Part shown: in pieces, positions 2,590-53,382 of the stretch
How positions within the stretch are numbered: the stretch's first letter is position 1
How the letters are laid out: each line of letters opens with the position of its first letter
Virus record (IMG/VR): IMGVR_UViG_3300035242_000035
Coordinates: 1 to 64,000 of that record
Origin: a virus
Reading direction: 5' to 3' (one strand)
DNA length: 64,000 nucleotides
The notes under the pieces: model-generated
Seen by the model: only the letters and a program-made list of their open reading frames with translations
Told to the model about the DNA's origin: nothing
Database searches by the model: none
Program-made: the position numbers and the translations under genes

Positions 2590-3093
2590 ATGAACGTGGC
2601 CAACCTCCCCAGAGCGCTCGTCGAGTGGGCCACGCACTTCGCGGACGCCGGCCGGGCGCACGAGGTGGACCCGTTCCTGCTCGCGGCCATCTGCTGGCGC
2701 GAGAGCCGAGGCGGCAGCGTCCTGAAGCCACCTGGCCCGGCAGGGGTTGGCGACGGAGGGCACGGGCGCGGGCTGATGCAGATCGACAACCGCGCCTGGA
2801 AGGACTGGGTCTTCCAGACGCCACTCGATAAACCGCAATGGCAGGACCCCCGCTACAACATCCTGAAAGGCGCCGAGATCCTGTCCGGCTACGTAGGCGA
2901 GCTGGGCGCGGAGCTCCCCGGCGTGGCGGCCTACAATGCCGGGCCGGGGGCAGTGCGCGCGGTCCTCAAGAGATCGGCGAACGTCTCCGCCCACGTCCTC
3001 CTCCACCGCCTGGACCTCATCACCACCGGGAAGAACTACGTCAGCGACGTGCTGGCGACGCGCAGCAGGTTCACGCCGAAGTCGCGCGTTTAG
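2590..3093 (+). CDS. Lytic transglycosylase, SLT type
   Basis: 167-residue peptidoglycan-cleaving enzyme of the soluble-lytic-transglycosylase fold. Visible hallmarks are the catalytic ES motif in ICWRESRGG (Glu near residue 38), the GRGLMQIDNRAW segment around residues 60-71, and the AAYNAGPGAV motif around residues 115-124. No signal peptide is present, so it either rides in the virion as a wall-penetrating enzyme or relies on a holin. Its last 23 bases overlap the convergent Mom-family gene. Confidence 0.85.
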   Translation: MNVANLPRALVEWATHFADAGRAHEVDPFLLAAICWRESRGGSVLKPPGPAGVGDGGHGRGLMQIDNRAWKDWVFQTPLDKPQWQDPRYNILKGAEILSGYVGELGAELPGVAAYNAGPGAVRAVLKRSANVSAHVLLHRLDLITTGKNYVSDVLATRSRFTPKSRV

Positions 3094-3895
3094 GGTTGGC
3101 GGGGACGAGATCCTCCCATGTTGGGAACGGGAGCCCGGCTGGGAGCGCTCTTTTGACTGCGCGGTGCAGGCCCCAGACGTAGCGCAGGTTGCCGCCGTGC
3201 CTCAGCGGCCTGGCGATCCTCGCGAGCCATTCCGTCATCCAGGTCGCCACGTCCTCGCCGCGCGCTGGCGGTTTCGCCCCGAAGCGCGTCAGGGTGGAGA
3301 TGGCGTAGCGGGCCCCGGTCTCGCCAGCCCGGGCCTTCTGGATGGCCCTCGGAGAGAAGATGGTCCCGTCCGGCAGCAGCTGGTGGACCCGCGCCTTCGA
3401 GCGGCCCGTGTAGACCCCGTTGTGGGCGCGGTAGATGGTCCCGAGGTGCCCGGGCATGACCACCGAGCCGTCGACCCGCGTCCGGCGCACCGGGTCGGAG
3501 AACGAGACGACCCCCGCGAACCCCTGGCGCGCGAGCAGCTCGAAGCACCTCCCCAGGAACCACGTCTCTCCGTTCGCCGGCACGTCGTCGAGCAGCACCA
3601 GGCGCCCCAGGTCGAGGCATTCCGCGGGCGGCGCCGGGATGGCGGAGAGCGCCTCCGCCCGGGCTGGCACGGAGAAGATGGCCGCGCCGACCACCTGCCC
3701 CGCGCGGCACAGGCCGAACTGCCGACGCGCCGCCGGGACGGAACCAGAGCAGTGGTGGGCGAGCACGAAGTCCTTCACCGGCCCGCACTTGCGCGCGAAC
3801 TCCACCACCTCGTAGAGGCGGGTCTGGATTGGCTCGCCCGCCGGCCGGTAGTTGGCGCGCCCAGATCGCCAGCGCTGCGTGAAGTCCACGTTCAT
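3071..3895 (-). CDS. mom: Mom-family DNA modification acyltransferase
   Basis: 274 residues with the conserved core of the phage Mu Mom family, a GNAT-like fold that hypermodifies adenine in phage DNA. The diagnostic run is LGRLVLLDDVPANGETWFL at residues 97-114, then GVVSFSDP (128-135), a GHLGTIYRAHN block (149-159) and YTGRSK (162-167). The family is known to shield phage DNA from restriction; the exact group added here cannot be told. It lies 73 bases downstream of the vWA gene and may be the last gene of the kinase/phosphatase operon. No Com-like translational activator is visible beside it. Confidence 0.85.
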   Translation of the reverse strand: MNVDFTQRWRSGRANYRPAGEPIQTRLYEVVEFARKCGPVKDFVLAHHCSGSVPAARRQFGLCRAGQVVGAAIFSVPARAEALSAIPAPPAECLDLGRLVLLDDVPANGETWFLGRCFELLARQGFAGVVSFSDPVRRTRVDGSVVMPGHLGTIYRAHNGVYTGRSKARVHQLLPDGTIFSPRAIQKARAGETGARYAISTLTRFGAKPPARGEDVATWMTEWLARIARPLRHGGNLRYVWGLHRAVKRALPAGLPFPTWEDLVPANPKRATSA

Positions 3896-3968
3896 CGGCC
3901 AGCTCCTCGCGGGAGGGTGACGCCCCTTGTCGCGTGCGAGCGGCCAGGGGCGCCCGTTCTCGCGACGA

Positions 3969-4766
3969 TCATGGCGCTCCGAAGCCGCCGGCCGAGGCCG
4001 CCTGGAAGTTCACCGCCGCCTGGGAGGCGCGCACGGCGGACTGTGAGAAGACCTGGAACGCCTGCCGGATGGACGACGCGTCGTTGCTGGGCGTGAGGAT
4101 CCACTTGTCCTCGATGCCCATGGCGCTGAACACCTTCCGGAAGTCGGTCTGCCCGTCGGCGATCCCCATCGCCGCCACGATGTGCGTCTCGGCCCGCCGC
4201 ATGTCCGTGACGATCTTCGCCACGTCGCTGGCGCTGGCGCGCTTGGAGTGGAGGTCCGCGCCGTCGGTGATGATGAGCGTCACCGTGCGGCACACCACGC
4301 CGCTGTTGGAGAAGTCCTGGGCCTTGGCCAGCACCGTGCCCAGGAGGAGCACGGTCTGGTCGTAGAGCGGGGTGCCCCCGGCGGCCCAGTAGTTGGACCC
4401 CTGCTCCATCTTCGGCACCTTGTTGACCGGCTGGTAGGGGAACAACACCCGGCCGTTCAGCAGGCGGGTGTGCGCCAGGATGGCGTCGGCCTGCTTGCTG
4501 GCGCGGAGCGCGTCGAGGACGAGGTTGTGGCCGTCGCAGACCACCTGCTCGTTGTGGGCCTCGGAGATCGACCCCGAGTCGTCGGGGAGGATGGAGACCA
4601 GCACCACCTCGCTGGACTGCACGTCATCCACGGTGATGCCGAGCCCGGCCTGAATCTGGGCGCCGAGGTCGCCCACGGCGAGGACCTGGGCGGACTCGGG
4701 CGAGAGGATGCCATCGGACTGGGCGCCCTGGAAAAGCTGGTCGACTGCGGTATTGCTCGAAGACAT
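3969..4766 (-). CDS. vWA domain protein, TerY/YegL type
   Basis: 265 residues. The MIDAS metal site is visible as D62-D-S64-G-S66 (DDSGSIS), with the GGTPLYD threonine loop and the TLIITDGAD strand supplying the later metal ligands. No signal peptide, so it is cytoplasmic. In cellular TerY-P and E. coli yegI-yegK-yegL clusters a vWA protein of this kind sits with a PP2C phosphatase and a protein kinase, exactly as here, and is thought to be a scaffold or target. The ribosome-binding site is AAGGAG inside an ACCCAAGGAG leader shared with the 4858-5919 gene. Confidence 0.85.
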   Translation of the reverse strand: MSSSNTAVDQLFQGAQSDGILSPESAQVLAVGDLGAQIQAGLGITVDDVQSSEVVLVSILPDDSGSISEAHNEQVVCDGHNLVLDALRASKQADAILAHTRLLNGRVLFPYQPVNKVPKMEQGSNYWAAGGTPLYDQTVLLLGTVLAKAQDFSNSGVVCRTVTLIITDGADLHSKRASASDVAKIVTDMRRAETHIVAAMGIADGQTDFRKVFSAMGIEDKWILTPSNDASSIRQAFQVFSQSAVRASQAAVNFQAASAGGFGAP

Positions 4767-4857
4767 TCGCGGTTCTCCTTGGGTTCTGCGGGTTCTCAGC
4801 TGGTTGAAGGCCGCCGCCGGCGACGTGCAGGCGGCGGGCGTGGCGAAACGGCCAAAC

Positions 4858-5919
4858 CTACATCCCCGGCCACGAGTCCATTGGCTGGGTGGACTTCACC
4901 AGGGTCATGCCGGCGGCGCCGAACCGCTGGAGCGCCTGCTCGGCGTCGGCCGTGTAGTCCGCGATGAACCCGCCCTTGCCGTCCGGCACGGTCACCGCCG
5001 ACATGCAGTCGGTCAGCACGTAGACCTTCTTCGCCAGCGCGGGGTCCTGGGTGGCGATCTCCGAGAGCAGGTCGTCGATGGAGCTCTTCACGCAGTGGCT
5101 GGCGGCCTGCCCGGCGATGACCACCGCGTCGGCGCCGAGGAGTGTCTTCAGGAAGGCCGTGTTCCGCTGGGCGAGCGGCTGACCGTCGTGGCGGGTGAGC
5201 ACCTCAGGGCGGAGGACGGAGTAGTTCTCGGTGAGCGGGTTCCCACCCTTCACCTCGCACCAAGACTGGGTGCCGCGGACGAAGGCGTGGAACAGCCGGG
5301 CCTCGTGGATGGTCCCGACGAGGGCGTGGCCGTCGCTGCCGAGCAGGCAGTGGGGCGGCCAGAGGTAGAGCCTGTACTTGCCGGCCTGCTCGAGCTGTTC
5401 GCAGTAGTGGCGGACCTGCCCCATCAGCCAGGTGTAGTTGCCGTTGCACAGCCACGGCGTCATGGCCGGGTTTGGCTTCACCTCGCCGGCCAGCACCTGC
5501 GCGGTGGAAATCTCCCGGAACGGGGCGGCCGGGCTCCCGTCGGCCTGCTGCCAGAACGAGGGGAAGAAGATTTGGTAGGCAAAGTGGGTGTCGAGCGTCG
5601 TCGTGATGCTGGTGATGCGCGGGAGGTTGCCGTAGATGAACTCGGCGATCCTGGCGCTGTCCTCAATGGCGCCGCGGCCGCTGCGGCCGCCGACGTAGAG
5701 CGTGCCCTGGGGCAGGCAGAAGTCCTTCTGCACGTCGATCAGCAGCAGGTGGGCGCGGAGCTTGTCCGTCGCCGCGGCGCGGACGTTGTGCGCCCGGCGG
5801 AAGTCGTCGGCGTGGGTGAGCAGAGTCTGCTGGTTGGGGGTGTAATCCCACGCGGCGGAGCGGTCGCGCGCGTAGAACGCTGGAGCTGGGGTCTGGGACG
5901 GCGAGGTGCTGGCTTTCAT
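4858..5919 (-). CDS. Nicotinamidase/isochorismatase-type cysteine hydrolase
   Basis: 353 residues, longer than the usual 200 or so because of an N-terminal extension and insertions. The nicotinamidase active site looks complete: D62 in LLIDVQKDF, the D110-T-H112 metal site, WPPHC with H190, K224 in VKGGNP, and nucleophile C276 in GQAASHCV after the cis-peptide loop. Expected chemistry is hydrolysis of nicotinamide to nicotinate in NAD salvage, although other amide substrates are possible. It lies between the kinase and vWA genes, so its substrate or product may belong to that circuit. Confidence 0.8.
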   Translation of the reverse strand: MKASTSPSQTPAPAFYARDRSAAWDYTPNQQTLLTHADDFRRAHNVRAAATDKLRAHLLLIDVQKDFCLPQGTLYVGGRSGRGAIEDSARIAEFIYGNLPRITSITTTLDTHFAYQIFFPSFWQQADGSPAAPFREISTAQVLAGEVKPNPAMTPWLCNGNYTWLMGQVRHYCEQLEQAGKYRLYLWPPHCLLGSDGHALVGTIHEARLFHAFVRGTQSWCEVKGGNPLTENYSVLRPEVLTRHDGQPLAQRNTAFLKTLLGADAVVIAGQAASHCVKSSIDDLLSEIATQDPALAKKVYVLTDCMSAVTVPDGKGGFIADYTADAEQALQRFGAAGMTLVKSTQPMDSWPGM

Positions 5920-5956
5920 GTGCGGCTCCTTGGGTGCTGCGGGTTGCGGTTGTGAA

Positions 5957-7828
5957 TCAGTGGAACGTCAGGGCGACGATCTTCTTGGGGCTCACAACGC
6001 AGAGCCCGCGCGCGGCGGCGATGAGAGAGCAGCTCGCGTCTACGAAGGGCTCGGCGTCCGAGAAGACGCGGGTCTCGGTCGGCGCGCCGTTCTGGAGCTC
6101 GACGCGGATCACGCCGTCGTCGGTGGGGCAGAGGAGCAAGTCCCCCGCGGCGCACCTGCCGTGGACGTTGGCGAGCCACGAGTTGGAGTTTGCCGGAGCC
6201 TCCAACTGGCCGAGGACGTCCCCGTTCCGACCGAGGACGACGCAGTAGTTGATGAGGCGGCCGCGGAGTTGGGTCGCCACGAAGAGCCAAGCGCGCCGCT
6301 CGTTGATCGCGCAGGCGGCGTCGAGGATCTGCCCTGGCATCGCCGGCAGCTTCACCGTGTCCCGCAGCCCGCGCTTCTCGGCGTCGAACGTGAATCCCAC
6401 GCTGACGGCACCGGCGCGGTAGAAGCCCACGCCGAACGTAGGGCCGACCCAGAAGCGAGTCTGTCCCTGCAGCACATCGCCGATGATCTCGGGCCCGAGC
6501 TGCGCGTCGCGGTGTAGGCGCCCGCCGTGCGCCCAGTAGATGTGCGCCGGGTTGCACCCGAAGACGGGGCGGCCCTGGCTGGTGTCAACCGAGTAGACCT
6601 GCGACGCAACCGTGGACGGGACGCGCACCACCTCCCCGCCGAGCGCGAGGTAGGTGTCGGGCCCGCGGATGGCGTAGGTCACCCCCGCCCGGAGCGGGCC
6701 ACCGTAGACCGCCTTGCCGTCTTCGCGGACGAACGAGCTGCCCTCCCAGGCCAGCCAGCGCACGTCCCCGCCGTCGAGGCAGGTGTGGACGACCTCGCCC
6801 CGGGTCTCGAAGACCGTGGTGGCGGATACGCGGCCGCGCGCGGCCACGACGCGCGTCGCGGTGGCCTGGGCGTGCGGCTGGCAGGTAGGGCAGGAGCCCC
6901 GCGCATGCTCCCTGCCGCAGGACGAGCACGTCTGGAAGTGCAGCTGCTCCAGCAGCGGACGCGGGAGCGCTGCGCGGGCGTCGCGCGCGAAGGTCTGGTC
7001 GAAGTGGTGGAGCAGGTCATGTGGAAGGCTCTCCGCCGGCATGGCGGGCTTCGGGTACTGCACCTCGGGGTGGAGCACCGTCACCCGGCGCAGCGGACGC
7101 GCCGCTGGCGGGATGCGCTTCATCGCGTCCTTGGGCCTGTGGATGCCGCCGAAGGGCCCGACGCAGAGGAGGCTCTGGAAAAGGAGCGCGTGGAAGGCGT
7201 ACCAGTCGGAGAGCTCGTTGTGGGGCTTCGTGAGCACCGGGGTGGGGGCGCTGGCCTCGCAGAGCAGGGGGTCCACGAACCGCTCGGTGAAGACCGAGCT
7301 GAGGTAGGACCGCGCGGCGGAGCGGAACTGGAAGCTGTCCGCGTCGACGATGGAGATGCCAGCGGTTTTCACCAGCACGTTCAGGTCGTTGAAATCGCCG
7401 ATCACCACGCCGTTCCGGTGGAGGGCGGCCACCGCCTCGTGCAGCTCCAGGAAGACCTTCACCACGCTCCCGCCGCCGACGGTCCGCCGGAAGGCGGGTT
7501 CGCCGTACCGCATGATGGGCTCGGCCCCGCGCACCAGCGACATCGTGTACCCGAGGACTACCTTCCCGGCCCGGTCGGTCGCCAGTTCCTGCGGCGCAAC
7601 CACCTGCCGGGGCAGTCCCTTCGGGAAGTCGCGGAGCTTCGTCTGGTGCTCGAGGATCCTTGTCCTGGCCGCCTGCTGCTGGTCCGGCATCCCGGTGAAG
7701 TCCGCGTGCTCCGGGGGCTTGTAGAGCTTCAGGGCCGTGCCGATGTCGTACACCTCCGCCTCGCCCCCGCGGCCGAGCAGCTGCGCGGGCGACACGCGGA
7801 CCAACTTCCCCGCGAGGTAGACGTTCAT
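5957..7828 (-). CDS. YegI-type protein kinase with zinc ribbon and C-terminal propeller-like domain
   Basis: 623 residues. Residues 1-300 form a divergent Ser/Thr kinase: glycine loop GRGGEAEVY (19-27), Lys in LKLYK (near 34), catalytic loop GDFNDLN (D145, N150) and DAD in place of DFG (162-164). Residues 301-316 are a zinc ribbon (CSSC, then CPTC). The rest has repeated beta segments suggesting a propeller-like sensor domain. The kinase part matches E. coli YegI (COG4248). Start ATG 7828 overlaps the PP2C stop (ATGA), implying coupled synthesis of kinase and phosphatase. Confidence 0.85.
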   Translation of the reverse strand: MNVYLAGKLVRVSPAQLLGRGGEAEVYDIGTALKLYKPPEHADFTGMPDQQQAARTRILEHQTKLRDFPKGLPRQVVAPQELATDRAGKVVLGYTMSLVRGAEPIMRYGEPAFRRTVGGGSVVKVFLELHEAVAALHRNGVVIGDFNDLNVLVKTAGISIVDADSFQFRSAARSYLSSVFTERFVDPLLCEASAPTPVLTKPHNELSDWYAFHALLFQSLLCVGPFGGIHRPKDAMKRIPPAARPLRRVTVLHPEVQYPKPAMPAESLPHDLLHHFDQTFARDARAALPRPLLEQLHFQTCSSCGREHARGSCPTCQPHAQATATRVVAARGRVSATTVFETRGEVVHTCLDGGDVRWLAWEGSSFVREDGKAVYGGPLRAGVTYAIRGPDTYLALGGEVVRVPSTVASQVYSVDTSQGRPVFGCNPAHIYWAHGGRLHRDAQLGPEIIGDVLQGQTRFWVGPTFGVGFYRAGAVSVGFTFDAEKRGLRDTVKLPAMPGQILDAACAINERRAWLFVATQLRGRLINYCVVLGRNGDVLGQLEAPANSNSWLANVHGRCAAGDLLLCPTDDGVIRVELQNGAPTETRVFSDAEPFVDASCSLIAAARGLCVVSPKKIVALTFH

Positions 7829-8652
7829 GGCGCCACCTTCCGCGCGAGCACCAGCGTGGTGTCGTCCCGCAGTAGTCCGGGCTCGACCCGGTGGGCTCCG
7901 TTGGCGCTCACCACCTTGTCGCGGCCTATGCGCGCCAACCACCGCCGCAGGCCGTCCTGGTTCTCGAAGACGGCGGGCCGCTCGAGGAGCTGGTGCAGGG
8001 GCCCGATGCGCTCCGTCGTCCCTGGGATGAAGCGGTCGGCCGCGTCGGCGAGGTCCCCAGCGCCGTCCGTCCCGACGATGAGCGTGGCCACGTCATCCAC
8101 GAGACGCCGGTGGTGGGTCCTGATTGTCAGAAGGTCGTCCGGGATGGACGTGGGCCTGTTCTTCAGGACGCCGTAGGCCAGATACGGCGGCTCGTTCCCC
8201 GCCTGCGGCTTCAGCCGCAGGGTCTCCCCGTTCACTGCGAGCAGGCCGTCCCCGCATGAGAAGGTTCGGAGGACCCCGCCGCTCGCGATCGCCCCCACCA
8301 CCGTGAAGAGCAGGCTCTCCACGACGGCGAAGCCGTGCAGACCAGGCGGCGCCAGCATCTCGGCCATCGCGAGAAGACGGTGCCGGACGGCCAGGGTGAC
8401 AGCCACCGTCCAGGCGCCATCGTCGTGGACCCGCCCGCCCTCGGCCTCGCTCGCCACGGCGTACGCCACCATCCGCGCCCCGGCGATAGCCCCCACCTCG
8501 CTCCGCGGGCTGCCGCTGCATCCGTCGCAGACGACGGCTACGAACCCGCCGTCCGGCAGTCGCAGGGTGAACGCGGCGTCCTGATTATTCCTGCCGACGA
8601 GCTGGTGTGGCCGGCCCGGCATGCTGCCGACCGCGAGTTGGAAGGTCGTCAC
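7825..8652 (-). CDS. PP2C-type protein phosphatase, YegK type
   Basis: 275 residues starting at GTG 8652, which overlaps the upstream stop (GTGA). PP2C metal motifs are visible: NNQDAAF near the N-terminus, VVCDGCSGSPRSEVGA, then FSCGDG, VGTDGAGD and a C-terminal RDDTTLVLAR. The family removes phosphate from Ser/Thr using two Mn or Mg ions. It is translationally coupled to the kinase that follows, the same pairing as YegK with YegI in E. coli. Confidence 0.85.
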   Translation of the reverse strand: MTTFQLAVGSMPGRPHQLVGRNNQDAAFTLRLPDGGFVAVVCDGCSGSPRSEVGAIAGARMVAYAVASEAEGGRVHDDGAWTVAVTLAVRHRLLAMAEMLAPPGLHGFAVVESLLFTVVGAIASGGVLRTFSCGDGLLAVNGETLRLKPQAGNEPPYLAYGVLKNRPTSIPDDLLTIRTHHRRLVDDVATLIVGTDGAGDLADAADRFIPGTTERIGPLHQLLERPAVFENQDGLRRWLARIGRDKVVSANGAHRVEPGLLRDDTTLVLARKVAP

Positions 8653-9293
8653 CGTCCGGCCCTCCAGCGGTTGAGGAACAGTTCGCGGGCGCGCCCCTCG
8701 CACGCGGGGAGCACGTCCTCCACCGTGAGCCCCCGGAGGGTCGGCGGCAGCCATGCGTCCGGCGAGTCGCCGAACGGTTGCACCATCACGAGCCGCTCCA
8801 CCGCCTCGCCCGCCCGCCAGCGTTCGCGCGCGGAGGGTGGCGCGGCGGCCACGAGCCACACGTCACCGGCGCTCGTCTCCACGACGACGGCGGCCCACGT
8901 CCTTTCGACCTCACGCGCGAACCTGGCGCCGATCACCTCAAAGATGCCCGCGGCCGTCGAAGCCTGGCGGTTGCGGCACCCGGCGCACACCAGACGGCCG
9001 TCGGGCCCGGACACCGCCTGGCTGATCGCCGCGTCGTCCAACTCGGCGGAGCACCCGTCGCAGTGCACGAGGTCTTCCACGACGAGCTCGCCCGGCTCGC
9101 CGTTCGGGGTCCTGTAGCCCAGGTAACGCCAGCCGTTGTCCGGGTCGTGGGTCCAGAACGACGCGCCGTCCGTCTGCTCGGCGCACCCGAGGTCCCCCAG
9201 CCTCACCTCGAAGACGCGCGCGCCTCCGCTCTCGGTCGGGCGGAAGGTGATTCGGTGGGTGGGTACGAACTTCACTGCGGCGTCTGGGTCCAC
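8649..9293 (-). CDS. Unknown protein with C-x2-C pair, first gene of kinase/phosphatase operon
   Basis: 214 residues from GTG 9293, preceded by GGGAGG. Two C-x2-C pairs (CDGC and CAGC, residues about 78-107) separated by 26 residues make a zinc-finger-like insertion. The flanks look like a mixed alpha/beta domain. It heads the operon and overlaps the PP2C start. I do not recognise the family; position suggests a sensor, adaptor or substrate of the phosphorylation circuit. Confidence 0.7.
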   Translation of the reverse strand: MDPDAAVKFVPTHRITFRPTESGGARVFEVRLGDLGCAEQTDGASFWTHDPDNGWRYLGYRTPNGEPGELVVEDLVHCDGCSAELDDAAISQAVSGPDGRLVCAGCRNRQASTAAGIFEVIGARFAREVERTWAAVVVETSAGDVWLVAAAPPSARERWRAGEAVERLVMVQPFGDSPDAWLPPTLRGLTVEDVLPACEGRARELFLNRWRAGR

Positions 9294-21220: not shown

Positions 21221-22336
21221 CTACGTCCCATCGGTCAGCACCTTTCGCGCCACGTCGGGCAGCGCCTCGGCGAGTTGGTCCTCCAGTTTCTCGCGGCTCC
21301 ACGGCTTGTGCAGGCGCCTGTGGCCCTTGGTGACCACCGTGTTCCCGTCCACCGCGGCACGGAAGACGCGCCCGGCCACGCCCATCTGCTCGTCCGTCGG
21401 CCCGTTCGGGCAGAGTGCGCCGAGCATCCCCTGCAGCACGTCGCGCGCCGCCTTCTCCCACTTCGTGTTCGTGCTGCCCCTGGTCCGCTTCCAGGTGACC
21501 ACCCCGCGCGCGGTCTCCAGCCCCTCGGCCTCGCCGATTGCGGAGGTGATGACGTTCTTCTCCTTGGCCACTTCCTCCTCCAAGCGCTTGCCGACCAGTT
21601 CCAGCATGCGCAGGCGCTCCACAGAGGCGGCGAGTTGGGGGTCCGCGACCTTGAGAATCGAGCCGGGCGTGTGCTCTGGGTAGTACGTCTTGAGGAAGTT
21701 GGCGTAAGAGGCGCTCGCGTCCGGCGGGGGCGGGCGGCGAGTCAGCACGTGGTCGGTCCAGAACCGCGCCCCGAGCTCCACCAGCGCGTTGAAGTACTGG
21801 TCGTCGAACGGCACCGTGTAGATCCAGAATACCGAGCGGTCGAACAGCACGGCCACGTCGCACAGCCCGACGCCGGACACGCCCATCTCCCAGGTGACCT
21901 GCGCGAGTTCGTCCTGCGGTAGGCCGGTCGGGTCTTCGTCCGGGTCTCGGTAGTGCTCCAGCAGGCGCCACGAATGGTTCTTCACCTGCAGGAGCCGCTC
22001 GATGCTGCCCCAGTCCTCCGTCTCCAGGCGCGGCTGCGGGCCGGAGTGGACGCAGCGGTCCGGAGTCGCCAGCGCGAAGGCGTGGCGTCCGCTCCGGATC
22101 GTCCCGGGGTTGGTCAGGTAGATGCGGCCGGTCCGGCGGGAGTACACCTCGGCGATGGGCGCCTCGAACAGGTCCCCCAGCTCCATCTGCAGGGTCTGCT
22201 CCTTCTCCCAGCCGAGCACCTTGCTCGCGTAAATGTGCGCGGGCGAGGTCCACCTGGACAGCCCCGCGATGGCCGCGATCTCGCTCGCGCCGATGCCGGA
22301 CCGCCTCAGCTCCAACTGCTCCCTGGTCAGCGGCAC
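21221..22336 (-). CDS. YqaJ-type alkaline exonuclease
   Basis: 371 residues from GTG 22336 (GGGGAGGAGG upstream). The N-terminal GIGASEIAAIAGLSRWTSP motif is the signature of YqaJ/lambda-exonuclease relatives; the active site is spread over ELGDLFEAPIAEVY, GLCDVAVLFD (acidic) and the LLQVKNHSW strand (Q-x-K). Predicted to resect double-stranded DNA and hand single strands to the Erf protein. The two genes form the phage recombination pair. Confidence 0.85.
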   Translation of the reverse strand: MPLTREQLELRRSGIGASEIAAIAGLSRWTSPAHIYASKVLGWEKEQTLQMELGDLFEAPIAEVYSRRTGRIYLTNPGTIRSGRHAFALATPDRCVHSGPQPRLETEDWGSIERLLQVKNHSWRLLEHYRDPDEDPTGLPQDELAQVTWEMGVSGVGLCDVAVLFDRSVFWIYTVPFDDQYFNALVELGARFWTDHVLTRRPPPPDASASYANFLKTYYPEHTPGSILKVADPQLAASVERLRMLELVGKRLEEEVAKEKNVITSAIGEAEGLETARGVVTWKRTRGSTNTKWEKAARDVLQGMLGALCPNGPTDEQMGVAGRVFRAAVDGNTVVTKGHRRLHKPWSREKLEDQLAEALPDVARKVLTDGT

Positions 22337-22665
22337 GTCGCCCTCCTCCCCGGTGCTGGCTCCACGCCGCACCCGGTGAGTCGGTCGACCTCCTCGGCGA
22401 GGATCCAGGCGTGGCAGGCGACCGCATCGGGCGGACACGCGCAGAGGAGCCGTTTGCCAGCCAGGCCGAAGAGGTGATCCGTGAACCACGGCCCCGTGCG
22501 CTCGATGCTGCGGCGTAGCCACTCTCGGTAGAGATCGAGGGCGCGCCAGCCGTACCGCTGCACGGTGTACGGGTTGCCCCAGGGGCCGGGCCGCGTGACG
22601 AGGACGTCCCGCTCTTCCGGTTCCCCTCGGCTGCGCAGACTGGCGACTTGGATTGGGGACATCAC
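22327..22665 (-). CDS. DUF4326 protein
   Basis: 112 residues. The family pattern is visible: PGPWGNPYTVQ, a helix DLYREWLRRSI, then LAGKRLLCACPPDAVACHAW with Cys residues that probably bind metal. The domain is common in phages and its role is unknown. It overlaps both neighbours. Confidence 0.75.
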   Translation of the reverse strand: MMSPIQVASLRSRGEPEERDVLVTRPGPWGNPYTVQRYGWRALDLYREWLRRSIERTGPWFTDHLFGLAGKRLLCACPPDAVACHAWILAEEVDRLTGCGVEPAPGRRATCR

Positions 22666-31995: not shown

Positions 31996-32040
31996 ATGAT
32001 GGTGTCCAGCCTCTGCGCACCCGCGAGGTGCGCTCGATGA
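31996..32040 (+). CDS. 14-residue leader peptide of methyltransferase operon
   Basis: The operon's ribosome-binding site (GGAAAGGAGAGG at 31975-31986) fits this ATG, not the methyltransferase. The ORF ends in an ATGA overlap with ATG 32037. It is likely a coupling leader, like the one at 11177-11251. Confidence 0.5.
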   Translation: MMVSSLCAPARCAR

Positions 32041-34223
32041 GTGATCACGTCTTCACCGCACTGTTCCCGTTCTGCGGCCTCGGAGCTGGCGCTCGCGGCT
32101 TCATCGAAGCGATGGCCCATCTCGGCACGGACTCGGCTCGGTTCCTCAACCTCGGCGGGATCGACGTCGACGCGGAGAGTTGCTCCGACTTCGAGAGGTT
32201 GGCCGGCGGCCCAGCGCTCCGGGCCGACCTGCACTCGCTCACGCCGGCCGAGCTCATCGCCTGGCTGGTGGCGCAGCACGGGAGGAAGATCGCGGAGAGA
32301 AGGCCCGACGCCGTATTTCTGTCTCCGCCATGCAAAGGCATGAGCAGATTGCTCGGGACGAAGGCGGCAAGGGCCGAGAAGTATCAGCGCCTCAACGGCC
32401 TCGTGTGCGAGGGGCTGTTCCTCGTCCTGGAGACGTGGCCGGACGCCAGGCCGCCGCTGATCGTGCTGGAGAACGTGCCGGGCATCGTCCAGCGCGGGGC
32501 CGAACTACTCGACCGCGCGCGGCGGATGCTGTCCGGGTACGGGTACGTCTTCAACGCGGCCACCCACGACTGCGGCGAGATCGGCGGGCTCGCCCAGCAC
32601 CGCAAGCGCTTCCTGTTGGTGGCGCGCGACCCGCGCCAGGTGCCGGCGTTCGTCTACCAACCGCCGAAGAAGCGGGTGCGCGGGTGTGGCGAGGTGCTCG
32701 GCGAGCTCGCGCTCCCCGGCGACCCGGAGGCCGGACCGCTCCACCGGCTCCCGCTGATCGATTGGGTGAATTGGGTGCGGCTGGCGCTGATCCCCCCGGG
32801 CGGAGACTGGCGGGACCTCCCCCGCACCGTCCAACTCGCTGCCGACAACCCTAACCGTCACGAGGCGAAGCTGCGGGTCGAGGACTTCTCCCAGCCCGCG
32901 CATGCGGTGACGGGCGCCACGCGGCCGAACTCCGGCGCGCCCTCTGTTGCGGACCCGAGGGTGCTGGGCTTGAACTTGAGCCCCAACGCCCACAACAACC
33001 TCTATGTCGTGGGCGCGTGGGAGGAACCAGCGAAGACGGTGATAGGCGCTACCCGCCCGGGCAGCGGCGCTGCCGCTGTCGCGGATCCCCACCTAGAGAA
33101 ACTCCAGCCGGGGCTCACGGCCACCAATGCGGGGACCTGGAAGGGTCGGCCGGGCTTCATGGGCGTGCTCGACTGGCGGGAGCCGTCTCGGACGGTGGTC
33201 GGTCGCTCCTCTGTCAGCGGGGGTCATGCCAGCGCGGCCGTCGCCGAGCCGTTCGGCCACGTGAACCTGGTGCTCGGATGGGACCAACCGTCTGGCACGG
33301 TCACCCACGCCCCAGCGCCCAGCTCGGGTGGCGGCGCCGTCGCTGACCCGCGTGTGCCCGGGCTGGAGATCTCCGACTCATCCCGTGGCGGCGCGCTGGG
33401 GGTGATTGGTTGGGCCGAACCGGCACCCACCATCACCGGGAGCATGGAGCCCGCGCGCAGCAACACGCCGGGCTCAGTGGCGGACCCACGCTTCCGCGGC
33501 AGCCTGGGCGTGACGGCCTGGCAGGCGCCTGCTCGAACCGTCACCGGCGAGAGCTACCCGAGCAATGGGGCCGCCTCGGTCGCTGACCCGCGTCTGGTCT
33601 CGCCTGTTCAGCCAGGCCAAGCCCGTCGCGAGGTGATCGGCCGGCACCGGGTGCTCGACTGGCGGCACCCGTCCCCGGTGGTCGCCGGCCCCGGCAGCAA
33701 CGGCGCGCAGAACATCGCCGACGTGAGGGCCGAGGCGCTCGTGCTCGGCTGCTCCCCGCGAGCCGGCGTGTACGGCGTGCTGTCCTGGGAGCAGGCCGCG
33801 GCCACGGTGATCGGCGAGGCCCGGGTGGACAACGGCCGGTACGCGGTCGCCGACCCTCGGCCCGGCGATCCCGGTTGGCGCCCGCCGGAGGGGGTAATCC
33901 CGGTCATCATCTCACCGTGGGGCTGCTGGCACCGGCCGCTGACGACGCTGGAGCTGGCGGCGCTGCAGGGGCTCCCGGCGACGCTCAACGGCAAGCCGCT
34001 GGAACTAGCTGGCCGGGCAGTGTCCAGGTGGCGCGAGCGCATCGGCAACGCCGTGCCGGTCCAGGCCGGGACCGCGATCGCCGTGAGCCTGCTGAAGGCG
34101 CTGCTCGCCTCCGCGGTCGGCCACTGGTCCATCCTCTTCGGGCCGGGCGGCGCCGCGGTGTGGGTCCGGGATGACGGGCGGGACGAGCACGAGGTGGGCC
34201 CTTCGGAGGGGGTGTCTCCATGA
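32037..34223 (+). CDS. C5-cytosine DNA methyltransferase with internal repeat array
   Basis: 728 residues. Methyltransferase motifs: I FCGLGAGARGF (12-22), IV with catalytic C99 in SPPCKGMS, VI ENVPG (145-149), VIII AQHRKRFLLVA and X RIGNAVPVQAG near the C-terminus. Between VIII and X, where target recognition sits, are eight units of about 35-45 residues patterned as W-x2-P-x-TV-x-G ... SVADPR. The enzyme probably methylates phage or host cytosines to avoid restriction. Translationally coupled to the helicase-methyltransferase gene. Confidence 0.9.
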   Translation: MSDHVFTALFPFCGLGAGARGFIEAMAHLGTDSARFLNLGGIDVDAESCSDFERLAGGPALRADLHSLTPAELIAWLVAQHGRKIAERRPDAVFLSPPCKGMSRLLGTKAARAEKYQRLNGLVCEGLFLVLETWPDARPPLIVLENVPGIVQRGAELLDRARRMLSGYGYVFNAATHDCGEIGGLAQHRKRFLLVARDPRQVPAFVYQPPKKRVRGCGEVLGELALPGDPEAGPLHRLPLIDWVNWVRLALIPPGGDWRDLPRTVQLAADNPNRHEAKLRVEDFSQPAHAVTGATRPNSGAPSVADPRVLGLNLSPNAHNNLYVVGAWEEPAKTVIGATRPGSGAAAVADPHLEKLQPGLTATNAGTWKGRPGFMGVLDWREPSRTVVGRSSVSGGHASAAVAEPFGHVNLVLGWDQPSGTVTHAPAPSSGGGAVADPRVPGLEISDSSRGGALGVIGWAEPAPTITGSMEPARSNTPGSVADPRFRGSLGVTAWQAPARTVTGESYPSNGAASVADPRLVSPVQPGQARREVIGRHRVLDWRHPSPVVAGPGSNGAQNIADVRAEALVLGCSPRAGVYGVLSWEQAAATVIGEARVDNGRYAVADPRPGDPGWRPPEGVIPVIISPWGCWHRPLTTLELAALQGLPATLNGKPLELAGRAVSRWRERIGNAVPVQAGTAIAVSLLKALLASAVGHWSILFGPGGAAVWVRDDGRDEHEVGPSEGVSP
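32880..33870 (+). repeat. Eight protein-level repeats in the C5 methyltransferase
   Basis: Units share a tryptophan-proline-T-V-x-G half and a VADPR half, e.g. QPAHAVTGATRP...SVADPR and EPAKTVIGATRP...AVADPH. DNA copies have diverged, so the array is old. It occupies the target-recognition region. Confidence 0.85.
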
Positions 34224-36484
34224 CCGCGGGATACGAGGCGTTCCTGTCCGGAAAGGCCCCGGCCTTCAGGCCCTCCGGTTTTGAGCCCAAGGCGGTGAGT
34301 CGCATGCTCAAGGCCTGGCAGGCGTCCATCGTCCGCCGCGGGTGCCGCCTCGGGCGGATGGCCGCCTTCGCGGACTGTGGCCTCGGCAAGGGGCCGATCG
34401 CGCTGGAGTGGGCGCGCCAGGTGGAGGCGAGCGCCGGGGCGCCGGTGCTGATCCTCGCCCCGCTCGCGGTGGCCCAGCAGTTCGTCACCGAGGCCCAGAA
34501 ATTCGGGCTCCCCTGCAGTTACGCCAGGAACCAGGCGGAGGCGTCCGGCCCGGTGGTGGCGACCAACTACGAGCGTCTGGGCGAGTTCGACCCCGGCCGC
34601 TTCTCAGGGGTGGTGCTGGACGAGTCGAGCATCCTCAAGAACTACTCCGGCAAGACGAAGCGCGTCCTGGTCGAGGCCTTCCGCACGACGCCGCACCGCC
34701 TGGCGTGCACCGCGACCCCGGCCCCCAACGACGTGATCGAACTCGGGAACCACGCCGAGTTCCTCGGCGTGATGCCGAGCGCCGAGATGCTAGCCCGGTG
34801 GTTCATCAACGATACGATGGAGGCCGGCAAGTACCGCCTCAAGCGCCACGCCGAGCGGGACTTCTGGCTGTGGGTCGCCGGGTGGGCCGTCACCATGGGC
34901 ACGCCGGGGGACCTGCTGGACGAGGCCGGCCAGCCGTACCCGGACGACGGCTACCAGCTGCCGCCCCTCGAGGTGGTCCACCACGTCGCGGCGGCGCCCG
35001 ACCGGAAGGCCCCGCCCGGCTCCCTGTTCGAGCACGTCACGCTCCACGCCACCACGCTCCACGCCGCCCTGAGGGAAAGTACGCCGCAGCGGGCAGAGCT
35101 CGCCGCGGAACTCGTGAAGGCCGAGCCGGACGAGGCCTGGGTAGTGTGGGTCGCCACCAACTACGAGGAGGAGGCGATCACCGAGCGACTGCCGGACGCA
35201 GTGGCGGTGCGTGGCGACATGGACCAGGAGGAGAAGCGGCGGCGGCTCGTGGACTTCGGAGAGGGGCGGGTCCGCGTCCTGGTCACCAAGGCGGGGATCG
35301 CCGGGTACGGCCTGAATTGGCAGCACTGCGCGAGGCACGTTCACCTGGCCAGCTCGTTCAGCTTCGAGGACTGGTATCAGGAGGCCCGGCGCAGCTACAG
35401 GTACGGCCAGACGCGCGCCGTCCGCGCGCACGTCGTGTGCGCCAGCGGCGAGGAGCGCATCCCGGAGGTCATCGCCGCGAAGCAGGCGGCCCACGCGGAC
35501 CAGCGCCGCCGGGCGGTGGAGGCCCAGCGCAGCCTTCAGCTCGCGGAACTCGACGGCCCGCGCGCCGAGGTCGGACCCGCCTACGTCAAGTCGGAGTCCA
35601 GCGAGGGTTGGAAGCTCCACCTCGGGGACTGCGTGGAGGCGGCGCGGCGGGTTCAGGACTCGTCCGTCGGGCTGCACCTGTTCTCCCCGCCGTTCTCCAA
35701 CCTGTACGTGTACTCGGCGAGCCTGCGCGACATGGGGAACTGCCGAGACGACGCCGAGTTCTTCCGGCACTTCGGATACCTCCTGCCCGAACTGTTGCGC
35801 ACCCTGAAGCCCGGGCGGCTGTGCGTGATCCACTGCAAGGACCTGCCGCAGTACCGCGGCGAGGCCGGCGCCCTCGGGCTGCGCGACTTCCCGGGCGAGC
35901 TCACCCGCCGGATGCTAGAGGTCCGCGGCGCTGACGGGGAACGGTTCGCCTACCACTCCAAGGTCACCATCTGGAAGTCACCTGTCTTGGAGATGCAGAA
36001 AACCAAGAGCTACGGCCTGCTCTACAAGACCCTCCGCGAGAACGGGTCCTTCTCGCGCCAGGGGCTGCCGGACTACCTGGTGGTGTTTCGCAAGTCCGCG
36101 CCCGGCGACGGGTGCGACGACCCGGTGAAGCACACGCCGGAGGACTACCCGCTCGAGCTGTGGCAGCGCGTGGCCTCGCCGGTGTGGTCGGACATCCGGC
36201 AGACACGCGTCCTCAACGTCGAGGCGGCCAGGGCCGACGACGACGAGAAGCACCTGGCGCCGCTGCAGCTCGACGTGGTGGAGCGCTGCGTTCGCCTCTG
36301 GACGAACCCCGGGGACCTCGTGTTCTCGCCCTTCGCCGGCGTCGGCAGCGAGGGCGTCGGGGCGCTCAAGTTGGGCAGGCTGTTCGAGGGGGCGGAGATC
36401 AAGCCCGAGTACTTCGAGCGGGCCTGCCGGAACCTGCGGTCCGCCGGCGCGCAGCTAGACCTGCTGACCGAGGAGGCGTCGTGA
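34220..36484 (+). CDS. SNF2-like helicase fused to N4/N6 DNA methyltransferase
   Basis: 754 residues. N-terminal superfamily-2 motor: DCGLGKGPIALEWA (Walker A with Gly in place of the usual Thr/Ser), ATNYERL, VVLDESSILKN (motif II), CTATPAPND (III), a VRVLVTKAGIAGYGLNWQ (V) and QEARRSYRYGQTR (VI). The C-terminal ~250 residues are a beta-class methyltransferase: SPPFSNLYVYS (motif IV) and a late FSPFAGVGSEGVGAL (motif I). Start ATG 34220 overlaps the C5-enzyme stop. Combined translocase-methyltransferases are known in phages; the modified base cannot be told. Confidence 0.85.
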   Translation: MTAGYEAFLSGKAPAFRPSGFEPKAVSRMLKAWQASIVRRGCRLGRMAAFADCGLGKGPIALEWARQVEASAGAPVLILAPLAVAQQFVTEAQKFGLPCSYARNQAEASGPVVATNYERLGEFDPGRFSGVVLDESSILKNYSGKTKRVLVEAFRTTPHRLACTATPAPNDVIELGNHAEFLGVMPSAEMLARWFINDTMEAGKYRLKRHAERDFWLWVAGWAVTMGTPGDLLDEAGQPYPDDGYQLPPLEVVHHVAAAPDRKAPPGSLFEHVTLHATTLHAALRESTPQRAELAAELVKAEPDEAWVVWVATNYEEEAITERLPDAVAVRGDMDQEEKRRRLVDFGEGRVRVLVTKAGIAGYGLNWQHCARHVHLASSFSFEDWYQEARRSYRYGQTRAVRAHVVCASGEERIPEVIAAKQAAHADQRRRAVEAQRSLQLAELDGPRAEVGPAYVKSESSEGWKLHLGDCVEAARRVQDSSVGLHLFSPPFSNLYVYSASLRDMGNCRDDAEFFRHFGYLLPELLRTLKPGRLCVIHCKDLPQYRGEAGALGLRDFPGELTRRMLEVRGADGERFAYHSKVTIWKSPVLEMQKTKSYGLLYKTLRENGSFSRQGLPDYLVVFRKSAPGDGCDDPVKHTPEDYPLELWQRVASPVWSDIRQTRVLNVEAARADDDEKHLAPLQLDVVERCVRLWTNPGDLVFSPFAGVGSEGVGALKLGRLFEGAEIKPEYFERACRNLRSAGAQLDLLTEEAS

Positions 36485-53082: not shown

Positions 53083-53382
53083 ATGAACATCAGACCACTG
53101 CAGGACCGGATCCTTGTTCGGAGGACCCCGGAGAAGACCTCATCGCCCGGGGGGATCATTATCCCCGATGTCGTGAAGGAGAAGCCGCTCGAGGGCAAGG
53201 TGGTCGCGGTGGGCAATGGCAAGGTCCTCGAGGACGGCAAGGTGCGGCCGCTGGACATCAAGGCGGGCGACACCGTGCTCTTCAGCAAGTACGCCGGCAC
53301 CGAGATCAAGATCGAGGGCGAGGACCACCTCATCCTCCGCGAGGAAGACGTCCTCGGCGTGATCGAGGGAGGTGCGGCATGA
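53083..53382 (+). CDS. groES: GroES-type co-chaperonin
   Basis: 99 residues from ATG 53083 (AGGAGGAGAG upstream). Conserved start [13 protein letters not shown], mobile loop ending [12 protein letters not shown] with the hydrophobic GroEL-binding III, then [30 protein letters not shown] and [13 protein letters not shown]. No GroEL is seen, so it would cap the host GroEL, as T4 gp31 does for capsid folding. Placed among head genes and coupled to the RyR gene. Confidence 0.95.

What the first reader, a model, noticed from the sequence alone, without database searches (positions are those of the whole stretch)
3071..9293. Complete kinase/phosphatase/vWA signalling module on a phage, with nicotinamidase and Mom
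The leftward cluster encodes a zinc-finger protein, PP2C, YegI-type kinase with zinc ribbon, nicotinamidase-like hydrolase, TerY/YegL-type vWA protein, then a Mom-family enzyme. Cellular yegI-yegK-yegL and TerY-P triads have the first three kinds of partner, but I know of no described version joined to a nicotinamidase and a DNA hypermodification enzyme on a phage. Overlapping start/stop codons (GTGA, ATGA) tie the zinc-finger, phosphatase and kinase genes together. An NAD-linked, phosphorylation-controlled defence or anti-defence role is my inference.
Basis: partly seen in the sequence, partly recalled or inferred. Interest (0 to 1): 0.85.

Follow-up and report, generated by a model that had tools for sequence, protein, structure and literature searches.

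The report
Phage-borne, phosphorylation-linked NAD+ salvage cassette
A virus of (probably) myxobacteria carries a four-gene set, a protein kinase, its opposing phosphatase, a nicotinamide-recycling enzyme and a binding-platform protein, which many soil bacteria and giant phages also carry next to NAD+-making genes, pointing to an undescribed way of controlling NAD+ recycling that viruses have taken over.

Summary
The grouping needs correcting. Only four genes are one thing: PP2C - kinase - nicotinamidase-like hydrolase - vWA. That order recurs in 53 of 54 bacterial loci with all four genes (mostly Myxococcota and Elusimicrobiota) and in 7 of 9 non-redundant large viral contigs. Mom and the zinc-finger gene match in none of the first 100 loci. 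The window is a complete 81-kb phage (127-bp terminal repeat) whose portal is closest to Myxococcus phages Mx8/Mx9.

Relatives of the hydrolase sit beside nicotinate phosphoribosyltransferase genes. Myxobacterial cassettes lie by an NrtR-type NAD regulator. A palindromic promoter element precedes 45 of 62 bacterial cassettes (0 expected) and is missing from this phage. Of 12 other phages with the module, 9 encode PncB-like and 6 NAD synthase.

Best reading: a nicotinamidase-based NAD+ salvage module controlled by a YegI/PphC/YegL-like (TerY-P-like) phospho-switch, carried by the phage without the host operator. Enzyme activity, phosphorylation target and any anti-defence role are inferred.

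The parts
7825..8652 (-). PP2C-type protein phosphatase (core gene 1)
   Evidence: PF13672 2.6e-11; metal ligands D25, D43, D196, D263/D264 kept; E. coli PphC hhalign 97.1%; GTG start overlaps ZnF stop (GTGA)
5957..7828 (-). YegI-type Ser/Thr kinase + zinc ribbon (C301-C316) + C-terminal all-beta, propeller-like domain ~330-622 (core gene 2)
   Evidence: K34, D145, N150, D162/D164 and zinc ribbon at least 90% conserved in relatives; AF2 pLDDT 91.4; Foldseek best hit LRRK2; YegI hhalign 99.1%
4858..5919 (-). Nicotinamidase-like (PncA-type) cysteine hydrolase (core gene 3)
   Evidence: D62/K224/C276 plus D110/H112/H190 invariant in 49 relatives; AF2 pLDDT 94.7; top Foldseek hits are nicotinamidases; NF008623 5e-6
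3969..4766 (-). vWA-domain protein with complete MIDAS (core gene 4)
   Evidence: phrog_7371 2e-6; MIDAS D62/S66/T132/D168 invariant and S64 at least 90%; up to 67% identity to cassette vWAs; E. coli YegL hhalign 84.1%
5926..5944 (-). 19-nt leader ACCCGCAGCACCCAAGGAG just upstream of the hydrolase gene
   Evidence: only two matches in 64 kb, expected 0.07; not found in bacterial cassettes
4775..4793 (-). Second copy of the same leader (ACCCGCAGAACCCAAGGAG) just upstream of the vWA gene
8649..9293 (-). Zinc-finger-like protein (CxxC...CxxC), translationally coupled to PP2C; local neighbour, not part of the conserved module
   Evidence: GTGA overlap; no homologue in 100 related loci or in viral contigs
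3071..3895 (-). Mom-family DNA modification enzyme; local neighbour, not part of the conserved module
   Evidence: PF25680 1.1e-18, phrog_1384 7.7e-22; absent from the 100 related loci tested

Best explanation
The four genes form one conserved cassette for NAD+ salvage under reversible protein phosphorylation. The hydrolase deamidates nicotinamide, the product of NAD+ cleavage, to nicotinate, which PncB, NadD and NadE turn back into NAD+ (Preiss-Handler route). The kinase, with its zinc ribbon and propeller-like domain as likely sensor or scaffold, and the PP2C set the phosphorylation state of the vWA protein and/or the hydrolase, switching salvage on or off. In myxobacteria the operon is transcriptionally tied to NAD status through NrtR and a promoter-overlapping palindrome. 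This Mx8-like phage carries the cassette without that operator and with its own repeated leader, so it can run nicotinamide recycling independently of the host repressor and lean on the host's PncB/NadD/NadE. Larger phages often carry those enzymes themselves. Shown by sequence: gene set, order, catalytic motifs, predicted fold, NAD-gene linkage, element present in bacteria and absent in this phage. Inferred: substrate, what is phosphorylated, that NrtR binds the element, benefit to the phage.
For: Synteny: 53 of 54 bacterial loci with all four genes keep PP2C-KIN-PNCA-VWA, as do 7 of 9 viral contigs. Diverged huge-phage versions also hold the genes, in other orders. Hydrolase = nicotinamidase: PDB sequence hits and Foldseek hits are nicotinamidases and the D-K-C triad is invariant. 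Triad-less relatives lie 3' of NAPRTase-like genes in Acidobacteriota (L095, L096, L097). A Myxococcaceae paralogue lies directly 3' of a NAPRTase (L118, TIGR01513 2e-34). Nine of ten cassette-bearing myxobacteria have no canonical nicotinamidase above the NF008623 cut-off. Regulation: NrtR (NrtR_WHD ~1e-30) sits upstream of PP2C in many myxobacteria. TTGAC-N3-5-GTGT-N6-7-ACAC[TCG]A lies within 300 bp of the cassette start in 45 of 62 loci, 0.0 expected, and before nrtR itself. Genomes with the element but no local NrtR have NrtR elsewhere in 14 of 15 cases versus 4 of 9 without it, Fisher p 0.015. Phages: PncB-like in 9 of 12 and NadE in 6 of 12 other module-bearing phages, one with NadD-PncB-NadE together. 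Variovorax plasmid: NrtR / hydrolase / vWA / NAD kinase.
Against: No activity shown. The hydrolase falls below curated nicotinamidase cut-offs, has extra sequence (353 aa), and has Gln where canonical enzymes have a further active-site His (Q116). Some Polyangiaceae have a separate PncB-PncA pair, so the cassette enzyme is not always the only nicotinamidase. The complete window phage has no PncB, NadD or NadE. No phosphorylation substrate is known. That NrtR binds the element is correlation only. The rate of PncB/NadE in module-free large phages was not measured.
Confidence: 0.7

Rival explanations
1. Anti-defence module: the phage uses the cassette specifically to rebuild NAD+ (or remove nicotinamide) when host NADase immunity (Thoeris, DSR2 and the like) strikes, a functional analogue of NARP1/NARP2 using PncA plus host or phage PncB-NadD-NadE. 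(This is compatible with the best explanation and would be its use in the phage.)
For: Phages of several kinds carry the module, often with PncB/NadE; phage NAD+ rebuilding is a known counter-defence (PMC12774641, PMC9503650); this phage also has a DUF4326 protein, a family proposed in PMC9503650 to process ADP-ribose products; the host-type operator is missing in the phage.
Against: The module is far commoner on myxobacterial chromosomes (72 of 146 Myxococcota genomes have a hydrolase-family member), so its primary role is cellular. No infection data. The window phage lacks the downstream enzymes.
Confidence: 0.35
2. Different substrate: the hydrolase is an isochorismatase-family amidase for another metabolite and the triad is a Ter-like stress switch; the NAD gene neighbours are coincidental.
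For: Below curated nicotinamidase cut-offs; Gln at a His position; the isochorismatase superfamily has many substrates; a distant Vibrio homologue lies near RNA-ligase and TerD-family genes.
Against: Independent adjacency to PncB in Acidobacteriota and Myxococcaceae, NrtR in Myxococcota and Variovorax, and NadE/NadD in phages; best fold and sequence hits are nicotinamidases.
Confidence: 0.12
3. Defence-type use: the phospho-switch triggers the hydrolase to shift nicotinamide/NAD+ pools (for example relieving nicotinamide inhibition of sirtuins or ADP-ribosyltransferases) and so arrests competing phages or the host.
For: TerY-P-like triads are associated with restriction systems and can be stand-alone antiphage systems (PMC11090510); the hydrolase resembles yeast Pnc1.
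Against: No PADLOC hit beyond weak kinase matches; no NADase, nuclease or other toxic effector in the cassette; recurrence across Myxococcaceae looks metabolic.
Confidence: 0.13
4. Neutral cargo picked up from a myxobacterial host, with no role in the phage cycle.
For: Mx8 and Mx9 gave no hit to the hydrolase; in the kinase tree the window lies among Myxococcota, apart from the phage group.
Against: All four genes intact with conserved motifs at only 52-71% identity to the nearest relatives, so not very recent; a distinct leader before two genes.
Confidence: 0.1

Closest known systems
TerY-P triad (TerY-like vWA + PP2C + Ser/Thr kinase-zinc ribbon; PMC11090510, citing Anantharaman et al. 2012)
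   Same: Same three partners; kinase with C-terminal zinc ribbon; vWA with intact MIDAS
   Different: Fourth constant partner is a nicotinamidase-like enzyme; kinase has an extra propeller-like C-terminal domain; linked to NrtR/PncB/NadE instead of ter or restriction genes
E. coli yegI - pphC(yegK) - yegL
   Same: All three proteins are detectable homologues and neighbours in E. coli K-12
   Different: No nicotinamidase in the E. coli neighbourhood; YegI homology covers only the kinase/zinc-ribbon part
Nicotinamidase PncA / yeast Pnc1
   Same: Fold, D-K-C triad, three metal ligands, genomic pairing of relatives with PncB
   Different: 353 aa, about 17% identity to solved enzymes, Gln116 at a His position, below curated model cut-offs
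Phage NAD+ synthesis by NadV/NadM/NadR (PMC9503650) and NARP1 (PMC12774641)
   Same: Phage-encoded rebuilding of NAD+
   Different: Uses PncA-PncB-NadD-NadE (via nicotinate) with a kinase/phosphatase/vWA control unit; that survey does not mention nicotinamidase, PncA, PP2C or TerY
NrtR regulon (ADP-ribose-sensing NAD regulator; PMC6800001)
   Same: Nudix + wHTH regulator next to NAD genes; palindrome before the regulator and its target operon
   Different: Target operon here is the kinase cassette; palindrome differs from that described for Mycobacterium; operator absent in the window phage

Membership tests
TerY-P / YegI-PphC-YegL triad | vWA domain protein with MIDAS (DxSxS...T...D) | tested here: met
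   D62, S66, T132, D168 invariant, S64 at least 90%; YegL hhalign 84.1%, E 7e-6
TerY-P / YegI-PphC-YegL triad | PP2C phosphatase with metal-binding aspartates | tested here: met
TerY-P / YegI-PphC-YegL triad | Ser/Thr kinase followed by a zinc ribbon | tested here: met
TerY-P / YegI-PphC-YegL triad | Link to ter, restriction or DNA-processing genes | tested here: not met
   Linked genes are NAD genes; Mom is only a local neighbour. Hence filed as related and working like one, not as a TerY-P system
Nicotinamidase (PncA) | Catalytic Asp-Lys-Cys triad | tested here: met
   D62/K224/C276 invariant in 49 sequences
Nicotinamidase (PncA) | Metal ligands Asp, His, His | tested here: met
   D110, H112, H190 invariant; the further His of some PncAs is Gln116
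Nicotinamidase (PncA) | Score above the curated nicotinamidase model (NF008623) | tested here: not met
   26 bits versus cut-off 174
Nicotinamidase (PncA) | Deamidates nicotinamide | not testable with these tools
   needs enzyme assay
NARP1 / NARP2 or NadV-type phage NAD+ reconstitution | Phage encodes the phosphoribosyltransferase and adenylyltransferase/ligase steps | tested here: not met
   No NAPRTase-family (PF04095), NAD synthase (PF02540) or nucleotidyltransferase (PF01467) match in the complete window genome; Adps/Namat not searched with dedicated models
NrtR regulon | Regulator and target share a palindromic operator | tested here: met
   Met in bacterial cassettes, not in the window phage. 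Binding itself not testable here
Known anti-phage defence system (PADLOC) | Match to a system's core proteins | tested here: not met
   only weak generic kinase matches, E about 1e-3
Mom family | PF25680 above curated cut-off | tested here: met
   68 bits versus 27

The most novel reading that the evidence does not exclude
A previously undescribed, phosphorylation-gated NAD+ recycling system: bacteria keep it under an ADP-ribose-sensing repressor, and phages carry it freed of that operator (often with PncB, NadD and NadE) as a nicotinate-based NAD+ reconstitution route that blunts NAD+-depleting immunity.
Probability: 0.38. Interest if true: 0.9.

Novelty: new variant of a known kind. Interest (0 to 1): 0.77.

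Why it matters
NAD+ depletion is a central weapon of bacterial immunity, and phage answers known so far rebuild NAD+ through NadV/NadM/NadR or NARP pathways. This module suggests another route (nicotinamidase to nicotinate) with built-in phosphorylation control, and gives the widespread but functionally obscure kinase/PP2C/vWA triads (YegI-PphC-YegL, TerY-P) a concrete, testable metabolic output. It is present in tractable hosts (Myxococcus xanthus, Corallococcus, Sorangium), so substrate, switch and regulator can all be tested directly.

Tried and rejected
Six-gene module including Mom and ZnF: rejected, neither matches in the first 100 loci and ZnF has no relative in viral contigs. Single-sequence vWA search in viral contigs found nothing; alignment queries did. 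Known defence system by PADLOC: nothing specific. Phages as the one source of the cassette: in the kinase tree the window lies apart from the phage group (support 98), but in the PncA tree one clade of all phages plus window is not rejected (p-AU 0.64), so the number of transfers stays open. A host-type operator in the window: none (best PWM score -3.3 versus training minimum 27). Sigma-70 promoters in the phage cassette: none found. Searches for close relatives of the phage by ParB and portal gave one distant ParB locus and no portal relative. Papers describing the combination: none found; Rodionov 2008 on NrtR is not held.
Full report
What the window is. The window is 64,000 bases of an 81,072-base virus record. 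The two ends of the record share a 127-base direct repeat, so the genome is complete at assembly level. It has a terminase large subunit, portal, major head protein, DnaB-type helicase and RecE-type exonuclease, plus an ERF recombinase. The portal is 46% identical over 96-99% of its length to Myxococcus phages Mx8 and Mx9, so a myxobacterial host is likely (inference).

Observation. The six leftward genes are present as described, with GTGA and ATGA overlaps between ZnF/PP2C and PP2C/kinase. Profile scores are strong for Mom and PP2C and weak for the kinase, hydrolase and vWA. Alignments with relatives make the weak ones secure. The hydrolase has D62, K224, C276, D110, H112 and H190 invariant among 49 sequences. 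The vWA has its MIDAS. The kinase has K34, D145, N150, D162 and the zinc ribbon cysteines in at least 90% of rows. PP2C has its metal aspartates. The assignment of these positions to catalysis rests on established knowledge of the families and on the alignment to yeast Pnc1 printed.

Which genes belong together. tblastn of the window proteins against 100 loci shows the four genes PP2C, kinase, hydrolase, vWA together on one strand. In 54 bacterial loci where all four are within the fetched DNA, 53 keep that order; 67 keep kinase-hydrolase-vWA. Gaps between the genes are mostly -8 to about 130 bases. The loci are mostly Myxococcota, with Elusimicrobiota and single Acidobacteriota and Planctomycetota. 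Nine non-redundant viral contigs of 97-545 kb carry all four, seven in the same order and two with the vWA first. Three huge phages in the annotated collection carry diverged hydrolase, vWA and PP2C, and two of them the kinase within the fetched stretch, in other orders. Mom and ZnF have no match in any of the 100 loci.

What the hydrolase is. The AlphaFold2 model (pLDDT 94.7) matches nicotinamidases first (2wta, 9u8m, 3v8e), and the alignment profile matches nicotinamidases in the PDB. Context agrees. Triad-less relatives in Acidobacteriota (L095, L096, L097) lie 3' of NAPRTase-like genes, identified there from the sequence by eye. The Myxococcaceae paralogue lies directly 3' of a NAPRTase. 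Nine of ten cassette-bearing myxobacterial genomes have no nicotinamidase above the NCBIfam cut-off, and nine of the ten have a NAPRTase above the Pfam cut-off. Sorangium has a second, ordinary PncB-PncA pair, so the cassette enzyme need not be the only one everywhere.

The signalling part. Profile comparison with E. coli K-12 neighbours gives YegI 99.1%, PphC 97.1%, YegL 84.1%. The published TerY-P triad is the same trio with a kinase-zinc ribbon (PMC11090510). The window kinase has an extra C-terminal all-beta domain (residues about 330-622) predicted with good local confidence but a low overall pTM of 0.58; Foldseek's best hit is LRRK2, a kinase with a WD40 propeller. I call it propeller-like.

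Regulation in cells. Many Myxococcaceae, Archangiaceae and Polyangiaceae loci have an NrtR-type regulator (NrtR_WHD about 1e-30 plus NUDIX) upstream of PP2C. The gap between nrtR and PP2C, and the start of nrtR, share a promoter-like palindrome, TTGAC-N3-5-GTGT-N6-7-ACAC[TCG]A. It lies within 300 bases of the cassette start (or of a lone hydrolase gene) in 45 of 62 testable bacterial loci, against 0.0 expected from base-shuffled sequence. In genomes without NrtR in the fetched flanks, NrtR is found in 14 of 15 whose locus has the element and 4 of 9 without it (Fisher p 0.015). NrtR is released from DNA by ADP-ribose and binds palindromes that differ between genera (PMC6800001). That NrtR binds this element is therefore likely but unproven. 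The window phage has no such element anywhere in the 64 kb. Instead an identical 19-base leader (one variable position) precedes the hydrolase and vWA genes and occurs nowhere else in the window.

NAD genes in phages with the module. Among 12 other phages, NAPRTase-family genes are found in 9, NAD synthase in 6 and nucleotidyltransferases of the family that includes NadD in 6. NCBIfam names the tested phosphoribosyltransferases as nicotinate, not nicotinamide, enzymes; one 545-kb phage has NadD, PncB and NadE within 6 kb, and another has PncB and NadE overlapping. A 462-kb phage has NadE about 3 kb from the hydrolase. A Variovorax plasmid has NrtR, hydrolase, vWA and NAD kinase close together. 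The published survey of viral NAD systems lists NadV, NadM and NadR as the phage enzymes and does not contain the words nicotinamidase, PncA, PP2C or TerY (PMC9503650). I did not measure how often module-free large phages carry PncB or NadE.

History. In the kinase tree the window falls among Myxococcota, outside a group of all other phages (support 98 with one acidobacterial row). In the hydrolase tree a single phage-plus-window clade cannot be rejected. Nearest relatives are 71% (hydrolase), 65% (vWA) and 52% (kinase) identical, all myxobacterial. The simplest reading is acquisition from a myxobacterial host line, not very recently.

Mechanism and status. Best reading: the cassette recycles nicotinamide toward NAD+ and its activity is set by reversible phosphorylation; cells couple it to NAD status through NrtR; the phage carries it free of that coupling and uses host PncB, NadD and NadE. 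Steps shown by sequence: gene set, order, motifs, predicted folds, NAD linkage, element presence and absence. Steps inferred: substrate, phosphorylation target, NrtR binding, benefit in infection. The anti-defence reading is attractive but has no direct evidence here.

Verdict. Not ordinary and not an artefact. It is a new variant of known kinds (a YegI-PphC-YegL/TerY-P-like triad plus a PncA-type enzyme), with a functional assignment that is strong by context, and with clear experiments in tractable hosts.

Noticed in passing
window 22327-22665 (-): DUF4326 protein (PF14216 8.5e-15); PMC9503650 proposes that this domain processes phosphates on ADP-ribose or its breakdown products, which would fit the NAD theme.
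   Followed up: no
window 53083-53382 (+): A GroES/Cpn10 co-chaperonin (PF00166 1.6e-33) a little upstream of the portal gene.
   Followed up: no
window 34220-36484 and 32037-34223 (+): A SNF2-type helicase fused to an N6/N4 DNA methylase, next to a C5-cytosine methylase; with Mom this phage has three DNA-modification genes.
   Followed up: no
L011:5477-8083: A 436-kb viral contig encodes a major-vault-protein-like protein (MVP shoulder PF11978 4e-29) about 1.1 kb upstream of its PP2C gene.
   Followed up: no
L006:9931-9955: A 236-kb phage has the palindrome TAGTGTTATAAGTACACTA 59-67 bases upstream of its hydrolase gene; it matches the bacterial operator but lacks the -35 box: possibly a retained host operator.
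   Followed up: partly
L003:2021-2695 and N-terminal part of L011:11885-13663: An unknown protein of similar sequence lies between the module genes in two different large phages; no Pfam match for the L003 copy.
   Followed up: no
window 4775-4793 and 5926-5944 (-): Nearly identical 19-base leaders before two cassette genes, expected 0.07 in the window, not seen in bacterial copies.
   Followed up: partly
L120 (genome G053):3430-7927: A second, diverged cassette type in a Myxococcota genome, using the shorter paralogue of the hydrolase with the same PP2C-kinase-hydrolase-vWA order.
   Followed up: partly
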